Numbered from the stretch's first letter, positions 2 through 13,371 are shown. The stretch is DNA of 64,000 nucleotides from an uncultured Campylobacterales bacterium (GCA_947503785.1 CANNFB010000003.1:124001-188000), one strand, 5' to 3'. A program made the numbers and translations. Notes: generated by a model from the letters alone, not told the origin.

Positions 2-2644
2 AGAGTATTAGTTTATAATAACATCTGGTATGAAACAATATTAGTATTAACTACTATAAACTTAACAGGTATTATTTTTAAATATAAAATGTGGAAAAAT
101 ACTCCTAGATTTATATTTCACTCTTCATTTGTGATTATACTAATAGGTGCTGGTGTTACTAGATATGTAGGATATGAAGGTATCATGCAAATTAAAGAAG
201 GAACTACAGAAAACAGAATGATTTCTTTAGAGCCATACTTACAAGTAACTATTGTAGAGGGTGAAAAAACGTACTTTAAAGAGTACCAAATGGAATTTAC
301 TACATTACTTAAATCAATAAATGAATTTAAGCATACTATTTCATATGAGGATAAAAACCTTAACATTGATTACAAAAACTATATGCTTGCTAAAAAAGGC
401 GATGCAAAGATGGGTATGTTAACTGTTGATGTTACAGTTAATGGTGAAACTCAAGAACTTAAATTACCAGGAAGAAGAAGTCAAAAAGGTCTTAAAAGAG
501 AATTGAAATTTGGTGATACTTCGGTGTTTTTAGAGTATGGTTCTAAAGTACTTACATTACCTTTTGCAATTAAACTAAATGATTTTCAACTTGATAGATA
601 TCCAGGAAGTATGTCTCCTTCTTCATATGCATCTGAAGTAACTGTTATTAAGGAAGATGGAAATACTTACGATTATAGGATTTTTATGAATAAAACAATG
701 CACGAAGGTAACTTCTTATTTTTCCAAAGTTCATATTTTCCTGATGAAACAGGTACTGTGTTATCTGTAAATAATGACCCTGGAAAATGGCCAACATACT
801 TAGGTTATTTCCTTTTAACTTTAGGACTTTGTCTAAACTTTTTTGATAAAAAATCAAGATTCAGAAAGCTTACGAAATTTGTGGATTCTAAAAGTATTGC
901 TTCAATAGCAGCTGCATGTATTTTTGTTTTTAGTGCAACATCACTTGAGGCAAATGAAGATGATACAAACTTTAAAATAAAAGCACAGCAAACTGTTGAA
1001 TATTTAAAAACTTTTAAAGAAGAATCAGCGCAAACTGCAAATAATTTTGCAAGATTAGTTACTCAAAGTTCTTCAGGAAGAATGAAACCAATTTCATCTT
1101 TAAACAGAGAAATTGTTTTAAAATTAAGTGGAAAAACTGAGTTTCTTGGAATGAATGCAGATCAAGTTGTTCTTGGTATTTTATCTCGTCCAGAAATTTG
1201 GAGAGATATTAAATTAATAAAAATTAAAACACCAAAACTTAAAAATTTTCTAGGTGTTGATACATCAAGAAAGCATATAGCCTTTTCTGAAGTATTTAAA
1301 GATGGTAAATATCTTTTAGCAAAAGAATCTGAAAAAGCGTCTTTATCAAAGCCGAATGAAAGAGGAACTTACGAAAGAGATATTATTAAAATAGATGAAA
1401 GATTAAATATTATATATGCAGTATTTAATGGAAACTTATTTAATATCTATCCAGAAGTTGAAACTTCAAAAAAGACTACAAATACAAAAGTTAGCAATAA
1501 ATGGTTTACTCCAATGGACGCTATGAATGATTTTGAAGGTAGAAATAAAACAGCAGTTGAAGCCATGACTAGAGGTTTAATAAACTCTATTATTCAGAAT
1601 AAATGGACTGAGGCTGACAACTTTATTTCAATGATAAATACATATCAACAAAAAGTTGGTTCAAAAGTTGTATTAAGTCAATCAGAAATTGATAATGAAA
1701 TTACGTTTAATGAAATTGATATCTTTCCTAAAGTTATGTTGGCATATATTTTCTTAGGAATTATTATATTAATTGCTGCATTCTTTGTAGTATTTAATCC
1801 TAGTATTAAACCTAAAAAGACTACATTTGTATTCTTTGTACTACTTTCATTAATATTTGCAGTTCATACTTATGGTATGGGATTCAGATGGATTATTTCA
1901 GGGCATGCTCCATGGTCTGATACCTATGAAACTTTACTATACATTTCATGGTCAGCAGTATTTGCAGGTATTATGTTCTTTAGAAAATCTTTACTAGCAC
2001 TTAGTGCTGCTGTTATTGTTGCAGGTATTTTTATGTTTACTGCACACTTAACAGGTATTGATCCACAAATTACAAATTTAGTTCCTGTATTAAAATCATA
2101 CTGGTTAACTATTCATGTATCAATCTTAACAGCATCTTATGGATTCTTTGCACTTGCTGCAATTTTAGGATATATGACATTAATTATGTTTATCTTTAGA
2201 AATAACAGACCTCATATTGATGAAACTATTAAACATGTTACGGCAATTATTGAAATTGCATTAATAGTGGGACTTGCTGCTATTACTATAGGAAACTTCC
2301 TTGGTGGTATTTGGGCAAATGAGTCTTGGGGTAGATATTGGGGATGGGATCCTAAAGAAACTTGGGCTTATGTATCAATTGTGATGTATGTAATTGTTGT
2401 ACACTTAAGATTTGTTAAACCTCTTTCAACTCCTTTTGTATTTGCAACAGCATCAGTACTTTCGTTCTCTTCAATTTTGATGACATATTTTGGAGTTAAC
2501 TTCTATCTAGCTGGAATGCACTCGTATGCAACAGGTGACCCTATTCCTATTCCTACATGGGTTTATTATGTTCTTACAATGGTAATTATTACAATTGCAT
2601 TAGCTTACAGAAATAGACATTTAAAACCACTAGTTAAAAACTAA
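2..2644 (+). CDS. ccsBA: CcsBA-type cytochrome c synthase (ResB-CcsA fusion), 5' end outside window
   Basis: The reading frame is open from base 2 through the first in-window ATG (base 89) with no stop, so the gene begins upstream of the window and the ATG at 89 is internal. The product is a fused System II cytochrome c synthase, which carries heme across the inner membrane and attaches it to CxxCH motifs of periplasmic cytochromes. Visible are ResB-type membrane segments with a conserved His (HSSF, bases 119-130), a large periplasmic loop, and a C-terminal CcsA part. The CcsA part has GHAPWSDTYETLLY, the tryptophan-rich heme-handling motif WGRYWGWDPKETW (from base 2327) and MHSYA. It may serve the cytochromes encoded just downstream. 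In Wolinella several CcsBA isoforms with different heme-motif preferences exist; which isoform this resembles cannot be told here. Confidence 0.95.
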   Translation, partial: RVLVYNNIWYETILVLTTINLTGIIFKYKMWKNTPRFIFHSSFVIILIGAGVTRYVGYEGIMQIKEGTTENRMISLEPYLQVTIVEGEKTYFKEYQMEFTTLLKSINEFKHTISYEDKNLNIDYKNYMLAKKGDAKMGMLTVDVTVNGETQELKLPGRRSQKGLKRELKFGDTSVFLEYGSKVLTLPFAIKLNDFQLDRYPGSMSPSSYASEVTVIKEDGNTYDYRIFMNKTMHEGNFLFFQSSYFPDETGTVLSVNNDPGKWPTYLGYFLLTLGLCLNFFDKKSRFRKLTKFVDSKSIASIAAACIFVFSATSLEANEDDTNFKIKAQQTVEYLKTFKEESAQTANNFARLVTQSSSGRMKPISSLNREIVLKLSGKTEFLGMNADQVVLGILSRPEIWRDIKLIKIKTPKLKNFLGVDTSRKHIAFSEVFKDGKYLLAKESEKASLSKPNERGTYERDIIKIDERLNIIYAVFNGNLFNIYPEVETSKKTTNTKVSNKWFTPMDAMNDFEGRNKTAVEAMTRGLINSIIQNKWTEADNFISMINTYQQKVGSKVVLSQSEIDNEITFNEIDIFPKVMLAYIFLGIIILIAAFFVVFNPSIKPKKTTFVFFVLLSLIFAVHTYGMGFRWIISGHAPWSDTYETLLYISWSAVFAGIMFFRKSLLALSAAVIVAGIFMFTAHLTGIDPQITNLVPVLKSYWLTIHVSILTASYGFFALAAILGYMTLIMFIFRNNRPHIDETIKHVTAIIEIALIVGLAAITIGNFLGGIWANESWGRYWGWDPKETWAYVSIVMYVIVVHLRFVKPLSTPFVFATASVLSFSSILMTYFGVNFYLAGMHSYATGDPIPIPTWVYYVLTMVIITIALAYRNRHLKPLVKN

Positions 2645-2663
2645 GAAGAAATTCTTAGTTTTT
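2636..2663. terminator. Bidirectional intrinsic terminator between ccsBA and the convergent operon
   Basis: A 7-bp stem (CTAAGAA at 2641-2647 pairing with TTCTTAG at 2652-2658, GAAA loop) is flanked by an A-run before and a T-run after. It overlaps the ccsBA stop codon and sits just beyond the end of the minus-strand gene at 2670, so it can end transcription from both sides. Confidence 0.7.
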
Positions 2664-2669
2664 ATAAAT

Positions 2670-3260
2670 CTACTTTTTACGAATACACTCTTTATATATT
2701 TTTACTTCTTTTGAATAATCTTTAAACCAATATTTTATGCTTGTACATTTTAAGTTTGTTCCATCATTTTTAACACCATATATAAAAACAGAAAAAGTAA
2801 AATATTTATCTTTATACTTAAATAGAACTTGTTCGGGAACGAGTTTCATTTCATAAGCATCTTCAATCCAATCTGACCAAAACTCTTCAAAATTATAATT
2901 AATTTCATTTGCAATTTCTAAATCTGAATATTTATATAATTCTATCTTTGCAATTGATAATTCATCAACGAATTTATTTCTTATTTTATAGTCGTATAGA
3001 CCATTCTCAGTTGGGTATTTATACTGATTTAACTGTATGTGTTTATTTATAAAAGAGTTATCGTTTTGTTTAAAATCAAGTTTAGTATAGCTTTTAGAAC
3101 TGCCAAATAAAACTAAGCCCTTTTCTTCTATATTTTCATAAATTAATTCATTCAAATATTCTGGAGCCTCGTAAAACATATCTGGATTAAAATAAGGACT
3201 ACACTCATTAGAATATAAATTATAAGTTAGTAATACAGTATATAATAAACTTTTTTTCAT
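2670..3260 (-). CDS. Secreted protein of unknown function, last gene of the two-component operon
   Basis: This 196-residue protein has a short N-terminal signal-like stretch (MKKSLLYTVLLTYNLYS) followed by a polar, aromatic-rich chain, so export to the periplasm is likely. I do not recognise a family. Two cysteines in the mature part (in NECSP and LKCTS) and a C-terminal KECIRKK could form disulfides. Its ATG shares one base with the stop codon of the sensor kinase gene (TAATG), which indicates translational coupling. The coupling suggests a role tied to the kinase, perhaps a periplasmic sensing accessory; that role is inference only. Confidence 0.7.
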   Translation of the reverse strand: MKKSLLYTVLLTYNLYSNECSPYFNPDMFYEAPEYLNELIYENIEEKGLVLFGSSKSYTKLDFKQNDNSFINKHIQLNQYKYPTENGLYDYKIRNKFVDELSIAKIELYKYSDLEIANEINYNFEEFWSDWIEDAYEMKLVPEQVLFKYKDKYFTFSVFIYGVKNDGTNLKCTSIKYWFKDYSKEVKIYKECIRKK

Positions 3261-5062
3261 TAATTACTACCATTTAATTTTATAGTGAAGACTGCACCAA
3301 TATCACTATTTTTAACACTTAAAGTTCCATTCATTTTATCTTCAATTATTGCTTTTGATAAATATAAACCTATTCCTGTTCCTTTATCTTCTTTTGTTGT
3401 AAAATATGGGTCGAATATTTCTTCAATTAAACAAGAAGGGACACCTCCTGCATTATCACAAACTTCAATTAATACATTATTCTTTTCATCATTAGATATA
3501 TTAATATTTATTTTCCCTTTTTCAATTTTTTTATCATCAATTGCATCTTTAGCATTTATAATAAGATTCATTAATACTTGTGAAAACTCGTTTTTATTTC
3601 CATATAAATTCGTTTTGTTCTTACAATTTATTTCTAAACTAATATTACTATGGTCAAGTACAGTTCCTATAATATTTAAAACATTTTCCAATCCATCTTT
3701 AATAGAAAACTCAGATTTCTTTTCATCTTTTTTATAGAAATTCTTAAAATTATCAATTGTATTAGACATAAATTCAATTTGATGTAAAGAGTTTTCCATA
3801 GCATCAAAAAATTGTTTATCATCCATTTTATTTTTTCTTTTATAAGCACTTAAATTTTGCAAGGTTAAAGAAAGTCTAGTTAAAGGATGTCTCCACTGAT
3901 GTGCTATATTACCAATCATATCACCTAATTCAGCAAGTTTGCTTTGATTTTGTAAAAGCCTATCTTTCTTTGCATTTTCTAAAGTTTTTAGAATAACTAT
4001 ATTGTCTAAATTTGTTGCTAAATCATGTAATTTATCAGCTTGCGAAACAACTAATTCAAAAAGTCTTTTGATAGCTTTTGTAAATATTAAAGTAAATACT
4101 AAAGACATTAATAGTGCAAATATTAATATTGCAACAATCATTTTATTATTGTTATTTTCAACAGTTTTAATAGACTCTTCTTTTTCAACCATAATCATAT
4201 TTATTTTTTGATTATCTATAAATAAAGATTGAACAAAAGTATTATCTTTGTATATTATATTTTGGTAATTTGTATTTTGAATTTTATTAATAAAATCTTT
4301 ATCAAAATCTTTATTAATAGTATGCTTAGAATCGTATAAAGACCAATTATGATTAGTGTTTTTGTGTTTAATATAATATCCAGAATCATCAACTAAATAT
4401 ATATCATATAAAGCTGATTTTGTAATATCTTCCAATAACTCTTTCATAAAAATATTTATAATTAAAATTCCTTTAAATTCTTTATTAATAAATAATGGAG
4501 TTCCAAGCCTAACCACGGATTTATTAGGTTTTTCTATATGCCCATGTTCTATATTTAAATCTATATCTGAAAACCAAATTTGATTTGGTTTCATTTTTGA
4601 TACTTCTGTAAAATAGTATCTATTTGCTTTATTTTGTAATTTTATTGATTTGTAAGGTTCCAAAGAGTGTTTTTCTCTATCAAATCTTAAAGTTTCATAT
4701 CCATTTTCATCTATATAACGAATTTGCATGTAGTCTTTATTAGATTCCATTATTGTAAGAAGAAGTAAATCAATGTAATACTTGTAACTCCCCTCTTTTA
4801 CAAACTTTATAAAGTATTCATTTTTTGAAATCGCTTGGAGAGCATCTCTTTTTGTTTGAAAATATTTATCGAAATTATCTTTTTTTTCACTACTTTGTAA
4901 TCTAACTTCTCTTTCAAACTTATTAGCAACCAAATCTTGAGAAAAATAAATATGAATTACAGTAATAGAGACTAATAATAGTAAAGTAAAAGCCATATAA
5001 GATAGAAATAATTTAAATCCGAAGTTTCTATTTTCTTTTGATAACTTATCAATCTCAAGCAT
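3260..5062 (-). CDS. Membrane sensor histidine kinase with periplasmic Cache-type domain
   Basis: This 600-residue inner-membrane kinase has a membrane helix near residues 18-40, a periplasmic sensor of about 260 residues that looks like a double Cache domain, and a second helix near 310-330. The cytoplasmic transmitter follows: H-box GNIAHQWRHPL with the phospho-accepting His at residue 388, N-box MNLIINAKDAID, G-box DNAGGVP, and IFDPYFTTKEDKGTGIGLYLS. Its start overlaps the response-regulator stop by 8 bases, so the two are a cognate pair. The pair lies in an operon with a thioredoxin-like protein and a cytochrome c, and divergent from a 12-heme cytochrome, so it probably senses a substrate or redox state relevant to that respiratory module. 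The ligand is unknown. Confidence 0.92.
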   Translation of the reverse strand: MLEIDKLSKENRNFGFKLFLSYMAFTLLLLVSITVIHIYFSQDLVANKFEREVRLQSSEKKDNFDKYFQTKRDALQAISKNEYFIKFVKEGSYKYYIDLLLLTIMESNKDYMQIRYIDENGYETLRFDREKHSLEPYKSIKLQNKANRYYFTEVSKMKPNQIWFSDIDLNIEHGHIEKPNKSVVRLGTPLFINKEFKGILIINIFMKELLEDITKSALYDIYLVDDSGYYIKHKNTNHNWSLYDSKHTINKDFDKDFINKIQNTNYQNIIYKDNTFVQSLFIDNQKINMIMVEKEESIKTVENNNNKMIVAILIFALLMSLVFTLIFTKAIKRLFELVVSQADKLHDLATNLDNIVILKTLENAKKDRLLQNQSKLAELGDMIGNIAHQWRHPLTRLSLTLQNLSAYKRKNKMDDKQFFDAMENSLHQIEFMSNTIDNFKNFYKKDEKKSEFSIKDGLENVLNIIGTVLDHSNISLEINCKNKTNLYGNKNEFSQVLMNLIINAKDAIDDKKIEKGKININISNDEKNNVLIEVCDNAGGVPSCLIEEIFDPYFTTKEDKGTGIGLYLSKAIIEDKMNGTLSVKNSDIGAVFTIKLNGSN

Positions 5063-5711
5063 ATTTATCTATCTTGTATCCAGAGTTTCTAATATTAATT
5101 ATAAAATTTTCTTCTAGTTTAGCTCTAATTTTTTTTATTTGAGTACGAAGTGTATTATCACAAACATTTTGTTCATCCCAAACATAATCTTTAATAATAC
5201 TAGGACTTAGAACAGTTCCTATGTTTTTAACTAATATATATAATAAATTTTTTTCATGTTTTTTCAAATCTATACTTTTATCTTTATATAAAAGTTGCAT
5301 AGATGACAAGTCAAATTTATAGTTATCACTAACTTGTACATAATCTAGATTTATATTCTTATGTAAAATTTGATTTATTCTTAATTCAAGCTCATCAAAA
5401 ATAAAAGGTTTTCTAATATAATCACTACAACCAATAGAATAACCTTCTTTTACGTGTTCTATGTCATTTTGTGCTGTTAAGTAAATAGCTGGAGTATTAA
5501 TTCCTTGTTTCCGTATTTCTTTTAATGTTTCAAAACCATTTTTCTTAGGTGTATTTATATCAAATAATAAAATATCATAATTATTTAAAATTGCATTATC
5601 TAGTAATTCTTCTCCATCATTAAAATAATCAACTTTATGACCATCTAATTGAAAATAACTTTGAATCGATTCGCAAATAAAATTATCATCTTCAAGTAGT
5701 AAAATTTTCAT
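5055..5711 (-). CDS. OmpR-family response regulator
   Basis: This is a 218-residue transcriptional regulator. The receiver domain (about residues 1-115) has the acidic pocket E7-D8-D9, phospho-acceptor D51, T79 and K101-P102. The C-terminal winged helix (about 125-218) has the usual OmpR/PhoB pattern ending in LRTQIKKIRAKLEE and an RNSGYKID wing. It is preceded by a good AAGGAAG ribosome binding site. It lies 20 bases after the monoheme cytochrome gene and overlaps the kinase gene by 8 bases. A palindrome in the divergent promoter region (6674-6691) is a candidate target. Control of both divergent operons is inferred from position, by analogy with other cytochrome clusters that carry their own two-component pair. 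Confidence 0.92.
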   Translation of the reverse strand: MKILLLEDDNFICESIQSYFQLDGHKVDYFNDGEELLDNAILNNYDILLFDINTPKKNGFETLKEIRKQGINTPAIYLTAQNDIEHVKEGYSIGCSDYIRKPFIFDELELRINQILHKNINLDYVQVSDNYKFDLSSMQLLYKDKSIDLKKHEKNLLYILVKNIGTVLSPSIIKDYVWDEQNVCDNTLRTQIKKIRAKLEENFIINIRNSGYKIDKYA

Positions 5712-5731
5712 AAACTTCCTTATATATTTTG

Positions 5732-6109
5732 TTAGTTACATGTGGGAATATTTTCAGAATCGTATGCAAACTCTTGTAAAAAAGAAAGTATTTGTTTTGA
5801 TTCCTTTTTAAATTCCTTACTTTTAATATACTCTAAAAGACCATGTGTTTGATCATCGTCAAAATGAATTTCACTCAATTCTATAGCATCTTTTGAGAAT
5901 ATAGTCTGCCATTCTCTAATAGATGCCATATTACCTCCTCTGCTACCCTCACCGTGACATGAAGAACATCTATTCATATAATATTCTTGACCAATTAAGT
6001 TTTTTGTAGCATATACTCCTCTTTTTTTAGCAGCATATAAATTTGTATTATACAAATAGAATACAACAAAAACAATTAATATAGAAGTAAGTTTATTTTT
6101 TAAATTCAT
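5732..6109 (-). CDS. Small periplasmic monoheme cytochrome c
   Basis: The product has a signal peptide (MNLKNK, hydrophobic run, cleavage near LYA/AKK) and one heme-binding motif, CSSCH, within the sequence YYMNRCSSCHGEGSRGG, typical of small class I cytochromes. I place the start at the ATG ending at 6109, which has a GGTGA ribosome binding site five bases upstream; a longer reading to 6133 is possible but would give a poorer signal peptide. With this start the gene overlaps the 3' end of the thioredoxin-like gene by 17 bases. It likely shuttles electrons in the periplasm, possibly to or from the divergently encoded 12-heme cytochrome. It also ends in PTCN, giving a third, non-heme cysteine. 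Confidence 0.85.
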   Translation of the reverse strand: MNLKNKLTSILIVFVVFYLYNTNLYAAKKRGVYATKNLIGQEYYMNRCSSCHGEGSRGGNMASIREWQTIFSKDAIELSEIHFDDDQTHGLLEYIKSKEFKKESKQILSFLQEFAYDSENIPTCN

Positions 6110-6584
6110 ATTTTTCACCATATAATTTCTCAAATTTTAATATTGAATCATCCATCCAAGCTAACATTTGTTTTAATGTCCACATACCATAAATAATCAT
6201 ATGTTTTTTGCCTTTTCTTGATAATTTTTCTTCATTTGGTCCTAAAAAATAAATTGCAGGTGTCATTGATACAGTAAGTCTAGGAGGACATTGACCTGTA
6301 TTTTCTACATCAGAATCTGCATCTAAAGAATTATCTAAAATCAAAGGAATAAAGTATTTTTTAATTTTTTCTTGAAATTCTGCTTTTGTAAATATTTCTT
6401 CCTTTAATTTTGGACAATAAAAACAAGTTCTTGACTCTAAAAACATAAAAATTGGTTTTTTATGATAATTTGCTAACTGTTTTGCTTCTTCTAACTCATG
6501 TTGCCAAGGTAAACCTTTTTCCCATGCATAATCAGCTTGAAGAAACGATATAATAGTAAATATAAGAATAAATACTTTTTTCAT
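6093..6584 (-). CDS. Periplasmic thioredoxin-fold protein with CFYC active site
   Basis: This 163-residue exported protein has a signal peptide ending near LQA/DYA, then a thioredoxin-like domain of the kind found in SoxW/thioredoxin_7 proteins. The active-site motif is RTCFYCPKLK, and a cis-proline region (VSMTPAIYFL) follows. A further cysteine in TGQCPPR is unusual. It is first in the minus-strand operon, with an AGGTGA ribosome binding site, and precedes a cytochrome c gene. It may keep apocytochrome cysteines reduced or handle sulfur-bound intermediates. Two related thioredoxin-fold proteins are encoded in the divergent operon, so one gene neighbourhood has three. Confidence 0.85.
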   Translation of the reverse strand: MKKVFILIFTIISFLQADYAWEKGLPWQHELEEAKQLANYHKKPIFMFLESRTCFYCPKLKEEIFTKAEFQEKIKKYFIPLILDNSLDADSDVENTGQCPPRLTVSMTPAIYFLGPNEEKLSRKGKKHMIIYGMWTLKQMLAWMDDSILKFEKLYGEKYEFKK

Positions 6585-6673
6585 TTATCTCACCTTTTTT
6601 CTTTAAAATCATTAAATCTTATTTTAAGTCATCTTTTTTAAACTCTATAATTTTTTATATTAAAAGCAATTGA

Positions 6674-6691
6674 TATGAATCAAGATTCATA
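6674..6691. promoter_or_regulatory. Perfect 18-bp palindrome in the divergent promoter region (candidate operator)
   Basis: TATGAATC, two bases, GATTCATA: 8-bp arms match perfectly. It lies about midway between the divergent starts at 6584 and 6793. The site is a good candidate for the OmpR-type regulator encoded in the minus-strand operon, although OmpR-type sites are more often direct repeats. Confidence 0.5.
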
Positions 6692-6714
6692 AAATTTTTA
6701 ATTTTTTTATGTTT

Positions 6715-6730
6715 TGGCACTTTATCAGCA
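6715..6730 (+). promoter_or_regulatory. Possible sigma-54-like promoter upstream of the 12-heme cytochrome gene
   Basis: TGGCAC at 6715-6720 is followed by a GC at 6728-6729, giving the GG-N10-GC spacing of a -24/-12 promoter; the -12 element reads CAGCA rather than TTGCA. No sigma-54 activator is encoded nearby, so this is weak. A TAGAAT at 6742-6747 could instead serve as a sigma-70 -10 box. Confidence 0.25.
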
Positions 6731-6792
6731 CTTTGCTTTGTTAGAATTTTAAATAATTGAGATTTAACTCAATAATTTTAAAAGGAGAAAAG

Positions 6793-9165
6793 ATGAAAAA
6801 CTTAGTATCTAAAATTGCTAAAGTTGTTGTATTCGTTTCATTGTTATCTTTTTCTTCACTTTTTGGTGCAGAGCATTCAAAAGGTGAGATGATAATGGCT
6901 GATGTAGCTGGTGGTGATTCGTGTATAAAATGTCATAAAGGCATTGAATCTATCAGAGATACAAAGTCTGAAATGATGCTGCAAATTCTTGCAATGGGCG
7001 AAAGCCTAGGAGATAGTGCTGGTTGTGTAGTTTGTCATGGTGGTAATCCAGAAAAAGGTTCTTTTGCAGAAGCTCATAAAGGTGCTCCAGTTGGACATGC
7101 AGGTGGATTAGCTGAATTCGTTAGAGATCCAGGTTCTATGTGGGTTGCTGATAAAACTTGTGGAATTTGTCATGCTCAAACAGTTGAAAATACGATGAAA
7201 TCGTTAATGATGACTGAAGCTGGTAAAATTCAAGGGAATATGCACACATGGGGAACATATAATACAAAAAAAGTTCAGTTTGCAAACTATGATGTGAAAG
7301 ATGATGATGGTAAAGAACCAGCATGGGGAACAAAAGTATATAAAGACTATATGGTTAAGATGATAGATAAATATCCTGATCAATTTCCAACTGAGCTAAA
7401 ACAATTACCTTTACCTCCAAGTGGACCAGAAGATTTTGCTGGTAAAACAGAGGAAGAAATTGGAGCAATGGCATCTGTTACTTACCAAAGATCTGATTGT
7501 CAAAGATGTCATATTGGAGTAAGAGGCAGAAAAGGTAGAGGTGACTGGAGAGGTATGGGATGTTCAGCATGTCATATGCCATACGGAAACGAAGGTATTT
7601 ACGAAGGTAATGATCCAACTGTAGATAAAAAAGAACATGGACATATGTTAGTACATATGATGCAAGGTACTAGAAAAGCAAAAGTTAAAACTCCATCTGG
7701 AATGGAATTCTCTGGTATTCATCCTGAAACTTGTAACTCATGTCATAATAGAGGAAAAAGAATCGGTGTTTCTTATGTTGGTTTAATGGAACAACCTTAT
7801 GGTTCGCCATTACAAGAAGGTGGTAAATCACAATCTAAACATCATGGTAAAAGATATAAACACATCAAAGAAGACTTACACTTTGAAGCTGGTATGACTT
7901 GTCAAGATTGTCACACTTCAGTTGATATGCATGGTGATGGTACATTATTTGGTACTACATTAGCTCAAGTTGAAATTGAATGTTCGGATTGTCATGGTAC
8001 AAATGATAAATATCCATGGGAATTAAATATTGGACATGGTGAAAACTTCAAAATTGACAAACCTGAAGGTCCAAGAGGAATGGCTCAAGAATTACCATAC
8101 TTTATGACTCAAGGTACTGTTTATCCTAAGCAAGATGGATATTTATTATCTACAAGAGGTAATCCACTTGGAAATGTTGTTAAACATAAAGATGCTAAAA
8201 AGGTAACTGTTCATTTAGCTTCTGGTAAAGATTTAGATGTTCCTTTATTAAAATATAAAGCTGAAACTAATACATATAAATCAAAAGCTGCTCATGTTGC
8301 TATGGGTGAAATTAGTGCACATATGGAAAATTTAGAATGTTATTCTTGTCACTCTGACTGGGCACCACAATGTTATGGATGTCATGTAAAAGTTGATTAT
8401 ACTCCAGGTAAATCAAGTACTGACTGGATTGCATCTGGTTCTACAAACTTTAAAAATGGTGAAACATCTGAGTCTGTATTAGGTACAAAAGGTAAAAAGT
8501 TATTTGGAAAACCAAGTGAAACTAGATCTTACTTAAGATGGGAAGACCCAATCTTAGGAATTAATGGAGAAGGACTTGTTACTCCTGTAATTCCAGGTTG
8601 TCAAGTTACATTTACTGTAATTGGACCTGATGGAAAAACTTTAATTTTAAATAAACAAGCTAGAGTTTCTGATAATGGTTCAACAGTTGCTGGTACTGAT
8701 ATGTCACCAGTTCAACCACACACATCTGGTAGAAAAGCTAGAACTTGTGAATCTTGTCACTCTAATCCTAAAACTTTAGGTTATGGTATTCAAGATGGTC
8801 AATTCTTGAAAAAACAAGGTGAAGATTTATATATGGATCTTCAAGATCTTAAAACTGGTAAATTTATACCAAAAAATAAAACTGTTCAAATGAAAGGTAT
8901 TCCAGGTATGGATTATGATTGGTCACAAATCGTAACTAGAGATGGAAAACAACTTCAAACTGTTGGTTCTCACTGGCCTGATTCAAGACCTCTTGATCAA
9001 GACCAAAGGGAAAGAATGGAAAAAACAGGTTTATGTATGGGTTGTCATCAAAATATGTCAAATAAAGATGTATGGGATAAACTAAATAGTGATAAAAAAC
9101 TAAATGTTGATGAACACATCAAAAAAATGCATGAAATGGCTAATAAAGCTGCTTCGGTAAAATAA
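6793..9165 (+). CDS. Periplasmic dodecaheme cytochrome c
   Basis: A 790-residue protein starts at the ATG at 6793, with an AAGGAGA ribosome binding site six bases upstream; a longer frame from a TTG at 6757 would spoil the signal peptide. The signal sequence ends near LFGA/EHS. Twelve CxxCH motifs begin at residues 44, 78, 123, 236, 257, 314, 370, 397, 516, 527, 652 and 748. Motifs 9 and 10 are packed tightly (CYSCH, six residues, CYGCH). The heme-rich halves are separated by stretches without motifs (about 402-515 and 532-651). The length and layout recall the multiheme reductase/oxidase superfamily (MccA, octaheme tetrathionate reductase), but I cannot assign a substrate. The adjacent operon genes suggest sulfur or thiol chemistry. 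It is probably the terminal enzyme or an electron hub of this module. Confidence 0.9.
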   Translation: MKNLVSKIAKVVVFVSLLSFSSLFGAEHSKGEMIMADVAGGDSCIKCHKGIESIRDTKSEMMLQILAMGESLGDSAGCVVCHGGNPEKGSFAEAHKGAPVGHAGGLAEFVRDPGSMWVADKTCGICHAQTVENTMKSLMMTEAGKIQGNMHTWGTYNTKKVQFANYDVKDDDGKEPAWGTKVYKDYMVKMIDKYPDQFPTELKQLPLPPSGPEDFAGKTEEEIGAMASVTYQRSDCQRCHIGVRGRKGRGDWRGMGCSACHMPYGNEGIYEGNDPTVDKKEHGHMLVHMMQGTRKAKVKTPSGMEFSGIHPETCNSCHNRGKRIGVSYVGLMEQPYGSPLQEGGKSQSKHHGKRYKHIKEDLHFEAGMTCQDCHTSVDMHGDGTLFGTTLAQVEIECSDCHGTNDKYPWELNIGHGENFKIDKPEGPRGMAQELPYFMTQGTVYPKQDGYLLSTRGNPLGNVVKHKDAKKVTVHLASGKDLDVPLLKYKAETNTYKSKAAHVAMGEISAHMENLECYSCHSDWAPQCYGCHVKVDYTPGKSSTDWIASGSTNFKNGETSESVLGTKGKKLFGKPSETRSYLRWEDPILGINGEGLVTPVIPGCQVTFTVIGPDGKTLILNKQARVSDNGSTVAGTDMSPVQPHTSGRKARTCESCHSNPKTLGYGIQDGQFLKKQGEDLYMDLQDLKTGKFIPKNKTVQMKGIPGMDYDWSQIVTRDGKQLQTVGSHWPDSRPLDQDQRERMEKTGLCMGCHQNMSNKDVWDKLNSDKKLNVDEHIKKMHEMANKAASVK

Positions 9166-9166
9166 A

Positions 9167-9194
9167 GAAAGAGAGGAATTCCTTCCTCTCTTTC
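9167..9194 (+). terminator. Strong hairpin after the dodecaheme cytochrome gene, no T-tract
   Basis: GAAAGAGAGGAA (9167-9178) pairs perfectly with TTCCTCTCTTTC (9183-9194) around a 4-base loop. No T-run follows, so it is more likely a 3' stabilising or partial-termination element that gives the cytochrome message a higher level than the downstream genes. Confidence 0.55.
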
Positions 9195-9264
9195 CTAATA
9201 ATTAAACTTATGATAATTAACTTATAGTTATTATAATTTTGACTATTAAAAAAAAGGTATATAA

Positions 9265-9915
9265 ATGAAAGAGTTATTTTTTAAAAAAACAATTATAAGT
9301 TCAATTGTAGCATCTACAATTTTACTAACAGGATGTAATGAAACAACAACTAAAGCTGAAGTGGTTGAAGTAAAAAAAGAAGTGGCTACAGTTACAAAGA
9401 AAGAAGAAGTAGCTAAAGTAACATATACTAAATATGATAACGTTGTAAATGAAACATTTAAAGACCCAGCTAAAATTGGTCCAGATGGAAAAATTATGTT
9501 AATAATTTTTGGTACAAATACTGATCCTTACACAGATAGATTAAAAGCTGATATTAAAAATTCAGAAGAATTAACTAATAAAATTAAAAATGATTTAACA
9601 TCATATTATTTAAAAGCACATGAAAATTTAAGACATAAATTATTTCATGAAAATGAATTTATGGATGTTGATACTAAAACGATGATTTCTATTTATGGAA
9701 TTGAATCTACTCCAACTTTAATTTTTGCAGATAAACAAGGAAAAGCTGTTATTGTGGTACCAGGTTACATGGAAACAAAACAATTTATTGAAACTATCAA
9801 ATTTATGAAAAGCAATAAATGGGAAGGTAAAGATAGAAAAAATGGAGAAGTTTATGAAGCTTTAAGAACTCACTATATTGAAAATGGTATTGATGTAAAG
9901 AAAAAGGATAAATAA
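9265..9915 (+). CDS. Thioredoxin-fold lipoprotein lacking the active-site cysteines
   Basis: This 216-residue protein has a lipoprotein signal with lipobox LLTGC (Cys24), a charged linker rich in Lys/Glu/Val, and a thioredoxin-like domain from about residue 70. Aligning it with the next gene product shows the same fold landmarks (FG-TNTDPYTDRL against FESITCAYCDLL, and a shared PTLIF..., VPGY segment). The CxxC position reads DPYT, and the lipobox cysteine is the only cysteine in the protein, so it cannot do dithiol chemistry. It may act as a membrane-anchored binding partner or scaffold. Its stop overlaps the next start by one base (TAATG), which implies coupled translation with the CxxC relative. 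Confidence 0.85.
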   Translation: MKELFFKKTIISSIVASTILLTGCNETTTKAEVVEVKKEVATVTKKEEVAKVTYTKYDNVVNETFKDPAKIGPDGKIMLIIFGTNTDPYTDRLKADIKNSEELTNKIKNDLTSYYLKAHENLRHKLFHENEFMDVDTKTMISIYGIESTPTLIFADKQGKAVIVVPGYMETKQFIETIKFMKSNKWEGKDRKNGEVYEALRTHYIENGIDVKKKDK

Positions 9916-10388
9916 TGAAAAAAATAGTTTTAATACTTGCACTTTTTCTTACATCTATTTTTGCACAAGCTGAGCTTAAAACTGATACAAATTTAGTAGC
10001 AGATGGTAAAGGTGTTATGTTTATTTTTGAAAGTATTACTTGTGCTTATTGTGATTTATTAAAAAAAGATTTTAAAGAAAATAAAGAAATGATTGAACTT
10101 GCAGAAGAGTTCAATATTTATTTAATAGATAGAGATAAAGAAATAGATTTTTTAGTTGGAAAAACAAAGAAAAAAGAGACTACTACTACTTTAAGGATGG
10201 CTTTTGCATCTAAATCTACTCCTAGTATTGTAATATTCGATAAAGATTGGAATAAAATATTCCAAGTTCCTGGATATGCTCATCCTTTACAAATGATTAC
10301 TTTTATGAAATTTGTAAAAGGTTTACATGAGAAGAAGTATGAAACAAAAGATTGGCAAAAGTTCTTAAAAGATAATGGTGTCTCTTAA
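9915..10388 (+). CDS. Periplasmic thioredoxin-fold protein with CAYC motif (SoxW-like)
   Basis: This 157-residue exported protein has a signal peptide ending near FAQA/ELK and a thioredoxin-like domain with active site ITCAYCDLL (Cys43 and Cys46) and cis-Pro segment STPSIVIF. It resembles SoxW/DsbE-like thiol proteins. It is translationally coupled to the cysteine-free lipoprotein before it and is directly followed (no spacer) by the flavoprotein gene. A likely role is reducing a disulfide or a cysteine-bound sulfur adduct on a partner in the same cluster; the partner is not evident from the sequence. Confidence 0.85.
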   Translation: MKKIVLILALFLTSIFAQAELKTDTNLVADGKGVMFIFESITCAYCDLLKKDFKENKEMIELAEEFNIYLIDRDKEIDFLVGKTKKKETTTTLRMAFASKSTPSIVIFDKDWNKIFQVPGYAHPLQMITFMKFVKGLHEKKYETKDWQKFLKDNGVS

Positions 10389-11696
10389 ATGTTAAGAAGA
10401 GAGTTTTTTAAAGTTTCAATTTTTGCAGCAGCACTTTTAACTACTGTCAGAATTGAAGCTAAAACTATTAAATCCACAAATAGTAGGAATAAGAAAACTA
10501 CTATAGCAATTTTAGGTGCAGGATTTGCTGGACTTTCTGCTGCAAAATATCTAAAAGATTTAAATCCATTACTCGATATTACAGTTATTGAAAAAAGAAA
10601 TAGTTTTATGTCTTGTCCTCTTAGTAATGCATGGTTAGGTGGAATTGAAGGTATTACTTATGAAAGTTTAAATTTTGATTATAATAGTGCAATAGAAAAG
10701 TATAATTTTAACTTCTTAAACGAAACTATAATAGATATAAATAGAGATAAAAAACAAATCATTACAAATGAAAATATTCTTCAATATGATTATATGATTA
10801 TGGCTTTAGGCATTGATTATAATTACAAAAAATTATTCAAACGTGACAAAGAAAAAATTAAACAAGCAAAAATTCAAGCACCTGCTGCATTAAAACCTGG
10901 AAGTGAGTCATTAAAACTTAAAAGAATGATTACAAACTTTAAAGGTGGTAATTTTATAATCACATTACCTTCTTCTTCATACAAATGTCCTCCTGCTCCG
11001 TATGAAAGAGCTTGTATGATTGCACACTACTTTAAAGAAAATGATATAAAAGGTAAGGTAGTTATCCTTGACCCTAGAGTTAAACCTGCATCTAAGGCAA
11101 AGCAATTTATCGAAGCTTATAATACAATTTATAAAGATTTTATTGAATACAAAAATCTTTCTAAGTTCAAAGATGTAGACTTTGATAAAAAAGTAGCATA
11201 TTTTAAAAAGTTTGATGAAAAACAAAATAAAGATATTATTGAAGAACTTAAATACGAAGAGATCTCAATAATCCCACCAAATAAAGCAAATAAATTATAT
11301 AAAAAAGCTGGTATTAAAACTTATGCACAAGGTTGGGTTAAATTAAAACAACCTACTTTTAGAACAGTAAGTGATGATGATATTTATGTAATCGGTGATG
11401 CACAAGGAGAATATCCTTATCCAAAAAGTGGACAAATGGCTAATTCATGTGCCTATATAGTTGCAAATGATTTAATAAGCAGAATAAATAACAAAGTATT
11501 TGATTATAAAAAAAATCTTCCAGGAAATGTTTGTTATTCGATTGTTGCACCAAATAAAGCTATATCAGTTACTCACTCATACATATTTGATGGAAAAATA
11601 ATTGCAAATGCAAAAACATCTGAGATCTCAAAAGATTCATATGATGCTGCAAAAATTTGGTATAAAGGAATTACAGATGATATGTTTGGATTATAA
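10389..11696 (+). CDS. Flavocytochrome c sulfide dehydrogenase-like FAD subunit (FccB/SoxF-like)
   Basis: This 435-residue protein opens with a twin-arginine-like signal (LRREFFKVS, then a hydrophobic run), consistent with Tat export of a folded FAD enzyme. The Rossmann motif ILGAGFAGLSAA (about residues 41-52) binds FAD. The family motif CPPAPYERA (Cys200) and Cys354 in ANSCAYIV match the two redox-active cysteines of sulfide dehydrogenases, and the C-terminal part resembles the FCSD flavin-binding domain. Family enzymes oxidise sulfide or persulfides and pass electrons to a cytochrome c subunit. No FccA-type diheme partner is adjacent, so the dodecaheme or monoheme cytochrome could be the acceptor (inference). 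It starts directly at the preceding stop codon and overlaps the next gene by 20 bases. Confidence 0.88.
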   Translation: MLRREFFKVSIFAAALLTTVRIEAKTIKSTNSRNKKTTIAILGAGFAGLSAAKYLKDLNPLLDITVIEKRNSFMSCPLSNAWLGGIEGITYESLNFDYNSAIEKYNFNFLNETIIDINRDKKQIITNENILQYDYMIMALGIDYNYKKLFKRDKEKIKQAKIQAPAALKPGSESLKLKRMITNFKGGNFIITLPSSSYKCPPAPYERACMIAHYFKENDIKGKVVILDPRVKPASKAKQFIEAYNTIYKDFIEYKNLSKFKDVDFDKKVAYFKKFDEKQNKDIIEELKYEEISIIPPNKANKLYKKAGIKTYAQGWVKLKQPTFRTVSDDDIYVIGDAQGEYPYPKSGQMANSCAYIVANDLISRINNKVFDYKKNLPGNVCYSIVAPNKAISVTHSYIFDGKIIANAKTSEISKDSYDAAKIWYKGITDDMFGL

Positions 11697-12036
11697 AAAG
11701 ATTTTTATTGCATCAATTTTATGTGTTAATACTCTATTTGCACAAGAAATTTGGTTAAAAGAAGCAGATAAAAGAATGAATTGGAAAGATGCAATACAGT
11801 ATTGTAAAGACCAAAATGCTATATTACCTTCAAGAGCTGTTTTTAAAAAAATATGGATGGATAATGGTAAAGCATCAGATATAAAAGGTTTTGATTTATC
11901 AGTATCTTTTTGGACAAGTGATGAAGTTAAAGATAATGTTTATGCTGCTTACCCTTTTTATTTTGGAGAAGGCAGAGACACTTGGTATTATAAAGCTGAT
12001 CATTATGGGGTTAGATGTATTAAAATTTCAAAATAG
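11677..12036 (+). CDS. Small secreted DUF1566-like (Lcl C-terminal-like) protein
   Basis: I place the start at the ATG at 11677, because AAAGGA lies seven bases upstream and the resulting 119-residue protein begins with a signal peptide ending near LFAQ/EIW. The mature part has the DUF1566 pattern: a W followed by MNWKDAIQYC, an ILPSR segment, SFWTSDEV, and a closing GVRCIKI. Two cysteines (in IQYCKD and VRCIK) may form a disulfide. It overlaps the flavoprotein gene by 20 bases and so is the last gene of the redox operon. The family is common but its function is unknown; here it may be a binding or structural accessory. Confidence 0.75.
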   Translation: MICLDYKKIFIASILCVNTLFAQEIWLKEADKRMNWKDAIQYCKDQNAILPSRAVFKKIWMDNGKASDIKGFDLSVSFWTSDEVKDNVYAAYPFYFGEGRDTWYYKADHYGVRCIKISK

Positions 12037-12081
12037 TTTTACATAGTTTCGATATAATCTTTAAAAATTAAAAGGATTATA

Positions 12082-13371
12082 TTGAGCTCTGTTATAGATA
12101 TATTTAAAAAAATTACTTCAATCCCTAGATGTTCAGGAACTCACACACCATTTATTACTTATATGCAAAACTTATCACAAAAAGCTGGATTTTTATGTAT
12201 TGTTGATGAATACAATAATATCTTGATAAAAAAAGAAAAATCAAATGCAAAACTAGTTTTCCAATCTCACTATGATATTGTTTGTTTAAGTGATAACTGT
12301 GTTCCAGTTATTGTACAAAATGGCGATATTTTAAGTGCACAAAACTCAACATTAGGAAGCGATAATGGAATTGGATGTGCTTATATGATTCAACTAATTC
12401 TTGATGAAGTTGATGCTGAGTATTTATTTACTTCTGATGAAGAAATAGGCTTAATTGGTGCAAATAATTTAAAGCTAGAATTAAAAGCTCCATATATGTT
12501 AAATCTTGATAGTGAAGAAGAAGCTGGAATTTGTATAGGTTGTGCAGGTGGAGTTGATATCTTTGCAATAAATTCAAATAAAAAAATTATACCAAATGAT
12601 GAAAACCTTGATCTTTATGAAATAAGTATTTCAAAACTTCAAGGTGGACACTCTGGAGTTGATATTGATAAAAATATCCCAAATGGTATAAAACTACTTG
12701 CTCAAACTATAAAAGAAGCAAAGGCTAAACTTTTAGACATAAATGGAGGGGAGAGAATAAACTCAATCCCAGTTAATGTAAAAGCAATCATTGCATCAAA
12801 AAAACTTCCAATAGCAAGTCATGAAAATATGACAATTACAAAAATAGATACAAAAAGCGAACATTTAAATATCTATGATGATGAAATTATTGATTTTATA
12901 GCAAGCTTCGAAAATGGTGTAAGAAGTCTAAACAAAGATTTAGGAGTAGTTCAAAACTCTATAAATCTTGCCATTATTAAAACAGGTTTAGATGAGATTA
13001 AAATCGAATTAAGTGCTAGGTCTATGGCAAATGAAGAATTAGCACAATTAAAAAATGAAACAATAAAAATGCTAGAAGAACATAATTTTACTGTTACAAC
13101 AGATGGAAAATATCCAGCATGGAAACCAGATATAAATGAGTTTACAAATAAAGTACTAGAAATATATAAAGAAGTAAATCCAAAAGCCTCACTAGAAGCG
13201 ATTCACGCAGGACTTGAATGTGCGATATTTAAAGATAAATACCCTCATATAAAAGTAGCTTCAATAGGTCCAAGTATTGAGTTTCCACACTCTAAAAAAG
13301 AAAGAGTTTCTATACAGTCAGTTGAAAATGTGTTTAAAGTAGTTCAACAAATCGTAAAAGAGATCAATTAA
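12082..13371 (+). CDS. pepD: Xaa-His dipeptidase (aminoacyl-histidine dipeptidase), M20 family
   Basis: This 429-residue cytosolic metallopeptidase starts at TTG 12082, supported by AAAGGA five bases upstream. Visible M20 features are SHYDIVC (metal His/Asp), STLGSDNGIGCA, TSDEEIGLIGA, NLDSEEEAG, and a C-terminal HAGLECAIF. The lid/dimerisation domain lies in the middle (GGHSGVDID). The enzyme hydrolyses dipeptides such as carnosine-type Xaa-His. It is somewhat shorter than the E. coli enzyme (485 residues). Its end almost touches the convergent gene at 13373. Confidence 0.9.
   Translation: MSSVIDIFKKITSIPRCSGTHTPFITYMQNLSQKAGFLCIVDEYNNILIKKEKSNAKLVFQSHYDIVCLSDNCVPVIVQNGDILSAQNSTLGSDNGIGCAYMIQLILDEVDAEYLFTSDEEIGLIGANNLKLELKAPYMLNLDSEEEAGICIGCAGGVDIFAINSNKKIIPNDENLDLYEISISKLQGGHSGVDIDKNIPNGIKLLAQTIKEAKAKLLDINGGERINSIPVNVKAIIASKKLPIASHENMTITKIDTKSEHLNIYDDEIIDFIASFENGVRSLNKDLGVVQNSINLAIIKTGLDEIKIELSARSMANEELAQLKNETIKMLEEHNFTVTTDGKYPAWKPDINEFTNKVLEIYKEVNPKASLEAIHAGLECAIFKDKYPHIKVASIGPSIEFPHSKKERVSIQSVENVFKVVQQIVKEIN

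What the first reader, a model, noticed from the sequence alone, without database searches (positions are those of the whole stretch)
2670..12036. Divergent redox island: dodecaheme cytochrome, thioredoxin-fold set, FccB-like flavoprotein, and own two-component system
Two divergent operons share a promoter region. Together they encode a 12-heme cytochrome, a monoheme cytochrome, three thioredoxin-fold proteins (one without cysteines), an FccB/SoxF-like flavoprotein, a DUF1566-like protein, a regulator/kinase pair and a secreted unknown. A ccsBA gene ends just beside them. I know related single parts (MccA, octaheme tetrathionate reductase, SoxF) but not this combination, and no FccA-type or quinol-oxidising partner is present. 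The substrate is likely a sulfur compound (inference). Best candidate for an undescribed respiratory system in this window.
Basis: partly seen in the sequence, partly recalled or inferred. Interest (0 to 1): 0.75.

Follow-up and report, generated by a model that had tools for sequence, protein, structure and literature searches.

The report
Twelve-heme enzyme with cysteine/selenocysteine site
A mobile block of respiratory genes in an Arcobacter-like bacterium encodes an uncharacterised twelve-heme cytochrome whose one spare cysteine never varies and is replaced by selenocysteine in distant relatives, which suggests a widespread, undescribed redox enzyme that comes with its own assembly helpers.

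Summary
The gene content is confirmed. The block (2645-12081) is an accessory island: five same-genus genomes have ccsBA directly followed by the peptidase gene, with nothing between. Its core is a dodecaheme cytochrome of a broad, uncharacterised family (459 relatives in one scan; 50 of 397 genomes of the phylum). The nearest named family is Geobacter ExtM, from the selenite/tellurite operon, but the score is far below cut-off and both occur in one genome. All 103 homologs share 12 hemes plus one non-heme cysteine, C603 (PGCQ). ExtM shares it. In 19 Desulfobacterota relatives it is an in-frame TGA, hence probably selenocysteine, and all 19 genomes carry selB. I read C603 as part of the active site. 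Two thioredoxin-fold proteins (9265-10388) belong to the HP0377 family of apocytochrome-c reductants, so they are best read as assembly factors; they follow the cytochrome in 31/33 and 29/32 testable loci. The cysteine-free lipoprotein is a degenerate CPYC protein. The FccB-like gene (3/19 loci, Arcobacteraceae only) is an add-on, so the sulfur inference drawn from it is weak. Substrate and direction are not shown; a sulfur or selenium species is most plausible.

The parts
89..2644 (+). ccsBA cytochrome c synthase (coding frame opens at the window edge); left border of the island, not part of it
   Evidence: only copy in the genome; directly followed by the peptidase gene in 5 same-genus genomes
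2670..3260 (-). secreted 196-aa protein of unknown function, with an N-terminal Cys conserved in all 7 aligned homologs
   Evidence: homologs sit in the same place in L013, L015, L016, L023, L034, L094
3260..5062 (-). sensor histidine kinase (HK_sensor_dom_bact, HisKA, HATPase_c)
   Evidence: a kinase of this family found in 8 of 8 loci with enough flank
5055..5711 (-). OmpR-type response regulator
5732..6115 (-). monoheme c-type cytochrome with a conserved C-terminal Cys (IPTC); longest ORF starts at 6133
   Evidence: 19/27 testable loci; top-scoring homologs only in type-A genomes
6093..6584 (-). periplasmic thioredoxin-fold protein TrxA, CFYC motif (Thioredoxin_7 / DsbH-like)
   Evidence: 19/29 testable loci
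6585..6792 (.). 208-bp divergent spacer between the two operons
   Evidence: no sigma-70 match above chance
6793..9165 (+). dodecaheme cytochrome c CYT12 (790 aa, 12 CXXCH, signal peptide)
   Evidence: 459 relatives
8599..8601 (+). codon TGT of the invariant non-heme cysteine C603 (PGCQ)
   Evidence: 103/103 homologs; TGA at this place in 19 relatives
9265..9915 (+). lipoprotein TrxB, HP0377-family thioredoxin fold, active-site cysteines lost (DPYT)
   Evidence: PDB 4FYB E 8.7e-43; 31/33 testable loci
9915..10388 (+). thioredoxin-fold protein TrxC, CAYC motif, HP0377 family
   Evidence: PDB 4FYB E 9.5e-16; 29/32 testable loci
10389..11696 (+). FccB/SoxF-like flavoprotein with both FCSD redox cysteines; Arcobacteraceae add-on
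   Evidence: 3/19 testable loci
11671..12036 (+). small secreted Lcl_C/DUF1566-like protein (sub-threshold), Arcobacteraceae add-on
   Evidence: 4/18 testable loci
12082..13371 (+). peptidase gene, right border of the island, not part of it
   Evidence: directly downstream of ccsBA in same-genus genomes without the island

Best explanation
The island is a self-contained periplasmic oxidoreductase module, inserted between ccsBA and a peptidase gene. The dodecaheme cytochrome is the enzyme. Eleven hemes form an electron wire; the invariant cysteine C603, in a beta-rich segment between hemes 10 and 11, lies at or next to the remaining heme and binds or attacks the substrate (Cys here, Sec in some relatives). 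TrxB and TrxC (HP0377 type), perhaps with TrxA, work with the housekeeping CcsBA: they keep the 24 heme cysteines, and C603, reduced so that hemes attach correctly. The monoheme cytochrome carries electrons between the enzyme and the respiratory chain, and the kinase/regulator pair switches the divergent operons on. In Arcobacteraceae an FccB-like flavoprotein was added later. The substrate is most probably a sulfur or selenium species (for example sulfite, polysulfide, tetrathionate, selenite), more likely reduced than oxidised. Shown: gene content, island border, family conservation, Cys/TGA exchange, HP0377 homology. Inferred: position of C603 near a heme, catalysis, electron route, substrate and direction.
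For: C603 is invariant in 103/103 homologs across phyla and present in true ExtM. In 19 of 19 TGA-bearing relatives the TGA is exactly at this position, is the only stop between first and last heme, and the reading frame goes on through hemes 11 and 12; all 19 genomes have selB above cut-off. Cys-to-Sec exchange is the usual mark of a redox-active or catalytic residue (established knowledge). There are 11 other invariant non-proximal histidines for 12 hemes, which leaves one heme without a His partner. TrxB/TrxC match HP0377 (PDB 4FYB: E 8.7e-43 and 9.5e-16), a lipoprotein that reduces apocytochrome c in vitro and is co-transcribed with ccsBA (PMC4460558); distant homologs lie beside ccsBA. 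TrxB top-tier homologs occur in 11 of 397 genomes, all with the type-A cytochrome. Relatives sit beside quinol modules: 4-heme/Fe-S/NrfD and Rieske/cytochrome b, which suits a respiratory enzyme.
Against: No biochemical data for any member. The coordinates of the predicted model could not be read, so the C603-heme distance is untested. ExtM lacks several of the non-proximal histidines, so the 11+1 count is not general. The Sec sequences form one clade, i.e. a single exchange. A SECIS element was not demonstrated (mean z -1.1; no RNAalifold consensus). TrxB here has no redox cysteines. Solitary family members in other Campylobacterota lack the Trx genes. The wire-only reading fits many of the same facts.
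Confidence: 0.48

Rival explanations
1. CYT12 is only an electron-transfer wire or capacitor in the periplasm, like other large multiheme cytochromes of metal reducers; C603 has a structural role.
For: Family kinship with ExtM, whose cluster encodes a porin and cytochromes and is thought to serve electron conduits (PMC5877670). 11 candidate distal histidines suggest mostly six-coordinate hemes. No known catalytic family matched by sequence.
Against: No porin, beta-barrel or outer-surface cytochrome in the island. A purely structural Cys would not be expected to be exchanged for Sec in a whole clade.
Confidence: 0.27
2. The island serves sulfide or polysulfide oxidation: FccB oxidises sulfide, the monoheme cytochrome acts as FccA, and CYT12 takes the electrons.
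For: FccB-like protein with both FCSD redox cysteines; a rhodanese-like gene follows TrxC in L034.
Against: FccB is in 3/19 testable loci and only in Arcobacteraceae, whereas the cytochrome and TrxB/TrxC are nearly always together.
Confidence: 0.1
3. It is the Campylobacterota version of the ExtM selenite/tellurite system, i.e. a chalcogen oxyanion reductase or detoxification system.
For: Best named family is ExtM (225 bits), same 12-heme layout and PGCQ cysteine.
Against: Far below the 800-bit cut-off; ExtM and CYT12 coexist as separate genes in genome G431; no ExtKL/N/O/P/Q/S or ExtI neighbours here. The published phenotype is for extI, not extM (PMC5877670).
Confidence: 0.13

Closest known systems
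ExtM, dodecaheme cytochrome of the Geobacter extHIJKLMNOPQS cluster (NCBIfam NF040943)
   Same: 12 hemes in the same order, PGCQ cysteine, CHxPY motif after heme 5, partial set of the same extra histidines
   Different: 225 bits against a cut-off of 800; CYT12 is about 170 residues longer and has more conserved histidines; different neighbours; both present in one genome
HP0377 (CcmG/CcsX-type lipoprotein of Helicobacter pylori, PDB 4FYB)
   Same: TrxB and TrxC are clear homologs; lipoprotein, link to ccsBA
   Different: TrxB of the window has lost both active-site cysteines; TrxC is not a lipoprotein by sequence; they accompany one particular cytochrome
MccA/SirA multiheme sulfite reductase
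   Same: Periplasmic multiheme enzyme; in one Campylobacterota genome an MccA-like cytochrome lies beside an HP0377 homolog and ccsBA
   Different: No CX15CH-type heme motif in CYT12, 12 hemes instead of 8, no sequence match, no NrfD partner in the island
Octaheme tetrathionate reductase OTR (PDB 1SP3)
   Same: Only solved structure returned by the structural comparison, spanning model residues 58-748; Sec forms of this family are also annotated (PMC13188914)
   Different: Z 5.4 over 292 residues at rmsd 5.4, below the level that shows kinship; no sequence match
Flavocytochrome c sulfide dehydrogenase / SoxF (FccB)
   Same: FCSD domains and both redox cysteines
   Different: No FccA beside it; accessory gene in few loci
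ExtKL selenoprotein cytochrome
   Same: A multiheme c-type cytochrome with Sec in the same Geobacter cluster as ExtM (PMC1914089, PMC13188914)
   Different: 5 hemes and a different protein; the reviews read here list no dodecaheme selenoprotein

Membership tests
ExtM (NF040943) | Score above curated cut-off of 800 bits | tested here: not met
   225.3 bits
ExtM (NF040943) | 12 CXXCH hemes in conserved order with PGCQ cysteine | tested here: met
ExtM (NF040943) | Operon with ExtKL, ExtN, Rieske ExtO, cytochrome b ExtP | tested here: not met
   gene list of the island
MccA/SirA sulfite reductase | Eight hemes, one with an extended CX15CH-type motif | tested here: not met
   12 CXXCH, no CX15CH
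MccA/SirA sulfite reductase | Fe-S and NrfD-type quinol partner | tested here: not met
   none in the island; only in Desulfobacterota relatives
OTR (tetrathionate reductase family octaheme cytochrome) | Sequence match to the family model (TIGR04315) | tested here: not met
   not among NCBIfam matches at E 0.1
OTR (tetrathionate reductase family octaheme cytochrome) | Common fold of the octaheme core | tested here: inconclusive
   1SP3 Z 5.4, rmsd 5.4, 292 aligned
FCSD flavoprotein (FccB/SoxF) | FCSD central and flavin-binding domains, two redox cysteines | tested here: met
FCSD (complete enzyme) | FccA-type cytochrome subunit encoded with FccB | tested here: inconclusive
   no FccA match, but a monoheme cytochrome lies in the divergent operon
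HP0377 / CcmG-CcsX apocytochrome reductant | Sequence homology to HP0377 | tested here: met
   TrxB profile E 8.7e-43, TrxC E 9.5e-16
HP0377 / CcmG-CcsX apocytochrome reductant | Active CXXC motif | tested here: inconclusive
   TrxC CAYC met in 36/36; TrxB lost it in Arcobacteraceae, CPYC in other clades
HP0377 / CcmG-CcsX apocytochrome reductant | Reduces apocytochrome c | not testable with these tools
   needs an assay
Selenoprotein (distant relatives, not the window gene) | In-frame TGA aligned to Cys of homologs, in genomes with selB | tested here: met
   19/19
Selenoprotein (distant relatives, not the window gene) | SECIS element downstream of the TGA | tested here: inconclusive

The most novel reading that the evidence does not exclude
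The ExtM/CYT12 superfamily is a new class of heme enzyme: a dodecaheme oxidoreductase whose active site is a heme with a conserved Cys or selenocysteine, spread through Campylobacterota, Desulfobacterota, Gamma- and Alphaproteobacteria, Thermaceae, Nitrospirota and Bacteroidota. It would respire a sulfur or selenium species and use dedicated HP0377-type maturation proteins in Campylobacterota.
Probability: 0.38. Interest if true: 0.8.

Novelty: new variant of a known kind. Interest (0 to 1): 0.62.

Why it matters
The cytochrome is present in about one in eight Campylobacterota genomes sampled (50/397) and in many other phyla, mostly of sulfidic or low-oxygen habitats by their record titles, yet no member has a known function. 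An invariant cysteine exchanged for selenocysteine gives a single residue on which a hypothesis can be tested, and links three open matters: what ExtM does in Geobacter, why these bacteria keep 12-heme proteins, and how such large cytochromes are assembled by the minimal CcsBA system. If the Sec forms hold, they add a multiheme cytochrome family to the selenoproteome that the recent review (PMC13188914) does not list.

Tried and rejected
Dedicated second ccsBA for an unusual heme motif: rejected, only one ccsBA in the genome and no unusual motif. MccA or NrfA membership: rejected; a weak NrfA-like CHMPY stretch (E 0.8 for that stretch) was kept only as a hint. Structural neighbours: Foldseek gave no match with E below 0.001 for the whole model or for the C-terminal part with C603 (no chain with Z 2 or more). 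This does not show a new fold. Measuring the C603-heme distance: not possible, model coordinates are not released to the script box. OTR family in Arcobacteraceae by PF11783: nothing rang anywhere, so not informative. SECIS consensus: not found. Plasmid records: only weak partial matches in sphingomonads. Literature: no paper found on this cytochrome clade. Cable-bacteria ExtM homologs are mentioned without function.

Full report
What is there. The window lies in a 2.76-Mb Arcobacteraceae-type genome (contig C3 124001-188000). The ORFs of the finding are confirmed. On the minus strand, reading away from the spacer 6585-6792, are a CFYC thioredoxin-fold protein, a monoheme cytochrome, an OmpR-type regulator, a sensor kinase and a secreted 196-aa protein. 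On the plus strand are the dodecaheme cytochrome (called CYT12 here, ATG at 6793), a lipoprotein with a thioredoxin fold (TrxB), a second thioredoxin-fold protein with CAYC (TrxC), an FccB-like flavoprotein and a small Lcl_C-like protein.

The block is an island. In five genomes of the same genus (L228-L232) ccsBA is followed directly by the peptidase gene that in the window lies at 12082-13371, with gaps of about 30-80 bp; in a sixth (G405, L233) the island is present near ccsBA. The window genome has one ccsBA only. Sequence 2645-12081 is therefore accessory DNA next to the housekeeping cytochrome c synthase. In several vent Campylobacterota ccsBA also lies just downstream of TrxC (L017, L019, L023, L034, L035).

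The cytochrome family. A scan of GTDB contigs found 459 relatives; 50 of 397 sampled genomes of the phylum have one. The 80 loci returned come from Campylobacterota, Alpha- and Gammaproteobacteria, Desulfobacterota, Nitrospirota/Nitrospinota, Bacteroidales, Thermaceae and others. Three kinds of neighbourhood recur. Type A of Campylobacterota (59-90% identity) has TrxB and TrxC. Gamma-/Alphaproteobacteria and Thermaceae have a TPR protein and a 197-aa protein. Desulfobacterota have a 4-heme cytochrome, an Fe-S protein and NrfD. A further Campylobacterota clade (43-50% identity) carries the gene alone among unrelated genes.

Kinship with ExtM. The only named family with full-length similarity is ExtM of the Geobacter selenite/tellurite cluster: 225 bits, cut-off 800. 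Genome G431 has both a true ExtM (1103 bits) and a CYT12, so they are separate families. Aligned, ExtM keeps the 12 hemes, the CHxPY motif and the PGCQ cysteine but lacks several extra histidines.

The cysteine. Among 103 homologs all heme cysteines and histidines are conserved; the first heme is CX4-5CH in many Desulfobacterota/Nitrospirota members and the third is CX4CH in Gammaproteobacteria. Beyond the heme motifs one cysteine, C603 in PGCQ, is present in 103 of 103. Eleven further histidines that are not part of a heme motif are conserved at 97% or more. If they are the distal ligands, one heme is left over. That is an inference from counting.

Selenocysteine at the same place. A relative in genome G437 carries TGA where the cysteine is expected. 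A search of 297 genomes of its phylum with the ExtM model gave many matches with exactly one TGA inside. In all 19 examined, the TGA falls at PG[TGA]QD, with 10 hemes before it and 2 after it, and no other stop between first and last heme. All 19 genomes have SelB above the curated cut-off; so do the six comparison genomes with cysteine forms, so SelB permits but does not prove Sec. The Sec forms make one clade, sister to cysteine forms. A SECIS hairpin was not established. A 2026 review of prokaryotic selenoproteins lists ExtKL and an octaheme cytochrome but no dodecaheme one, and the 2007 stop-codon survey reports the ExtKL cluster only among cytochromes. Cys/Sec exchange at an otherwise invariant position is what catalytic residues do (established knowledge). 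This is the main reason to read CYT12 as an enzyme and not just a wire.

The thioredoxin-fold set. The TrxB profile matches H. pylori HP0377 (PDB 4FYB) at E 8.7e-43 and TrxC matches it at 9.5e-16. HP0377 is a lipoprotein that reduces apocytochrome c in vitro and is co-transcribed with ccsBA (PMC4460558). Distant homologs in other Campylobacterota lie directly beside ccsBA (L213, L214, L216, L217), in L217 also beside an MccA-like cytochrome. TrxB top-tier homologs (280 bits or more) occur in 11 of 397 genomes, every one a type-A genome; the twelfth type-A genome has a truncated contig. The active site is CPYC in several vent clades and DPYT or similar in Arcobacteraceae and others: the cysteine-free state is a loss. 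TrxA matches only general thioredoxin families.

Co-occurrence, counted only where the contig is long enough (window excluded): TrxB 31/33, TrxC 29/32, TrxA 19/29, monoheme cytochrome 19/27, kinase 8/8, FccB 3/19, Lcl 4/18. The core is thus cytochrome + TrxB + TrxC + two-component system, usually with TrxA and the monoheme cytochrome. FccB and Lcl are add-ons.

Structure. The AlphaFold model is good overall (pLDDT 82.5, pTM 0.83) but weak around residues 317-357. No PDB chain reached E 0.001. The second look gave only 1SP3 (OTR), Z 5.4, rmsd 5.4, 292 aligned, which may mean only a common heme arrangement. The C-terminal part with C603 alone (pLDDT 81.1, pTM 0.65) gave nothing.

How it most likely works. 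Shown: a conserved operon with a 12-heme exported protein, an invariant Cys replaced by TGA in relatives, and two HP0377-type proteins. Inferred: C603 acts at a heme, electrons pass between the hemes, the monoheme cytochrome and the chain, and the HP0377-type proteins and CcsBA assemble the enzyme. Direction: relatives next to quinol modules suit a reductase, but such modules can run either way. Substrate: a sulfur or selenium species fits a reactive Cys/Sec; nothing here excludes others.

Verdict. Its most telling feature is the Cys/Sec centre of the cytochrome, not the FccB-like protein. It is a new variant of the multiheme oxidoreductases rather than a new category, unless the Cys/Sec-heme site is confirmed.

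Noticed in passing
L217 (G097:C1:813000-822000), 383-7805: MccA-like cytochrome (7 CXXCH and an extended CX17CH-type motif), a rhodanese/hexaheme/cytochrome b fusion protein, an HP0377-like lipoprotein and ccsBA in one cluster.
   Followed up: partly
window 9165-9196: A 14-pair hairpin directly after the cytochrome stop codon and before trxB, without a clear T run on the plus strand; possibly an mRNA-stabilising or attenuating element that keeps the cytochrome transcript in excess.
   Followed up: no
window 5732-6115 (minus strand): The monoheme cytochrome has a C-terminal Cys (IPTC) conserved in 96% of 24 aligned homologs; function unknown.
   Followed up: no
cytochrome residue 151 (window 7243-7245): His in type-A, gamma/alpha and many delta members, Trp in most members of the solitary Campylobacterota clade, Bacteroidales and Nitrospirota; may mark two functional subtypes.
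   Followed up: no
L111, L112, L113, L115: The solitary dodecaheme clade lies in a conserved place beside nusB, ribH and a CofH/MqnC-type radical SAM gene, with no Trx genes.
   Followed up: partly
L083, 9705-10736: In a Nitrospirota relative the cytochrome is followed by an AhpC/TSA-TPR fusion protein, another thioredoxin-fold neighbour outside Campylobacterota.
   Followed up: no
L034, 13603-14004: A small secreted protein that reads as rhodanese-like stands between trxC and ccsBA in an Arcobacteraceae relative; judged by eye, not scanned.
   Followed up: no
L205, 940-5900: A 304-aa ORF with 12 heme motifs and an 1188-aa ORF with 7 heme motifs lie about 2 kb downstream of the TGA-type cytochrome in G541.
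   Followed up: no
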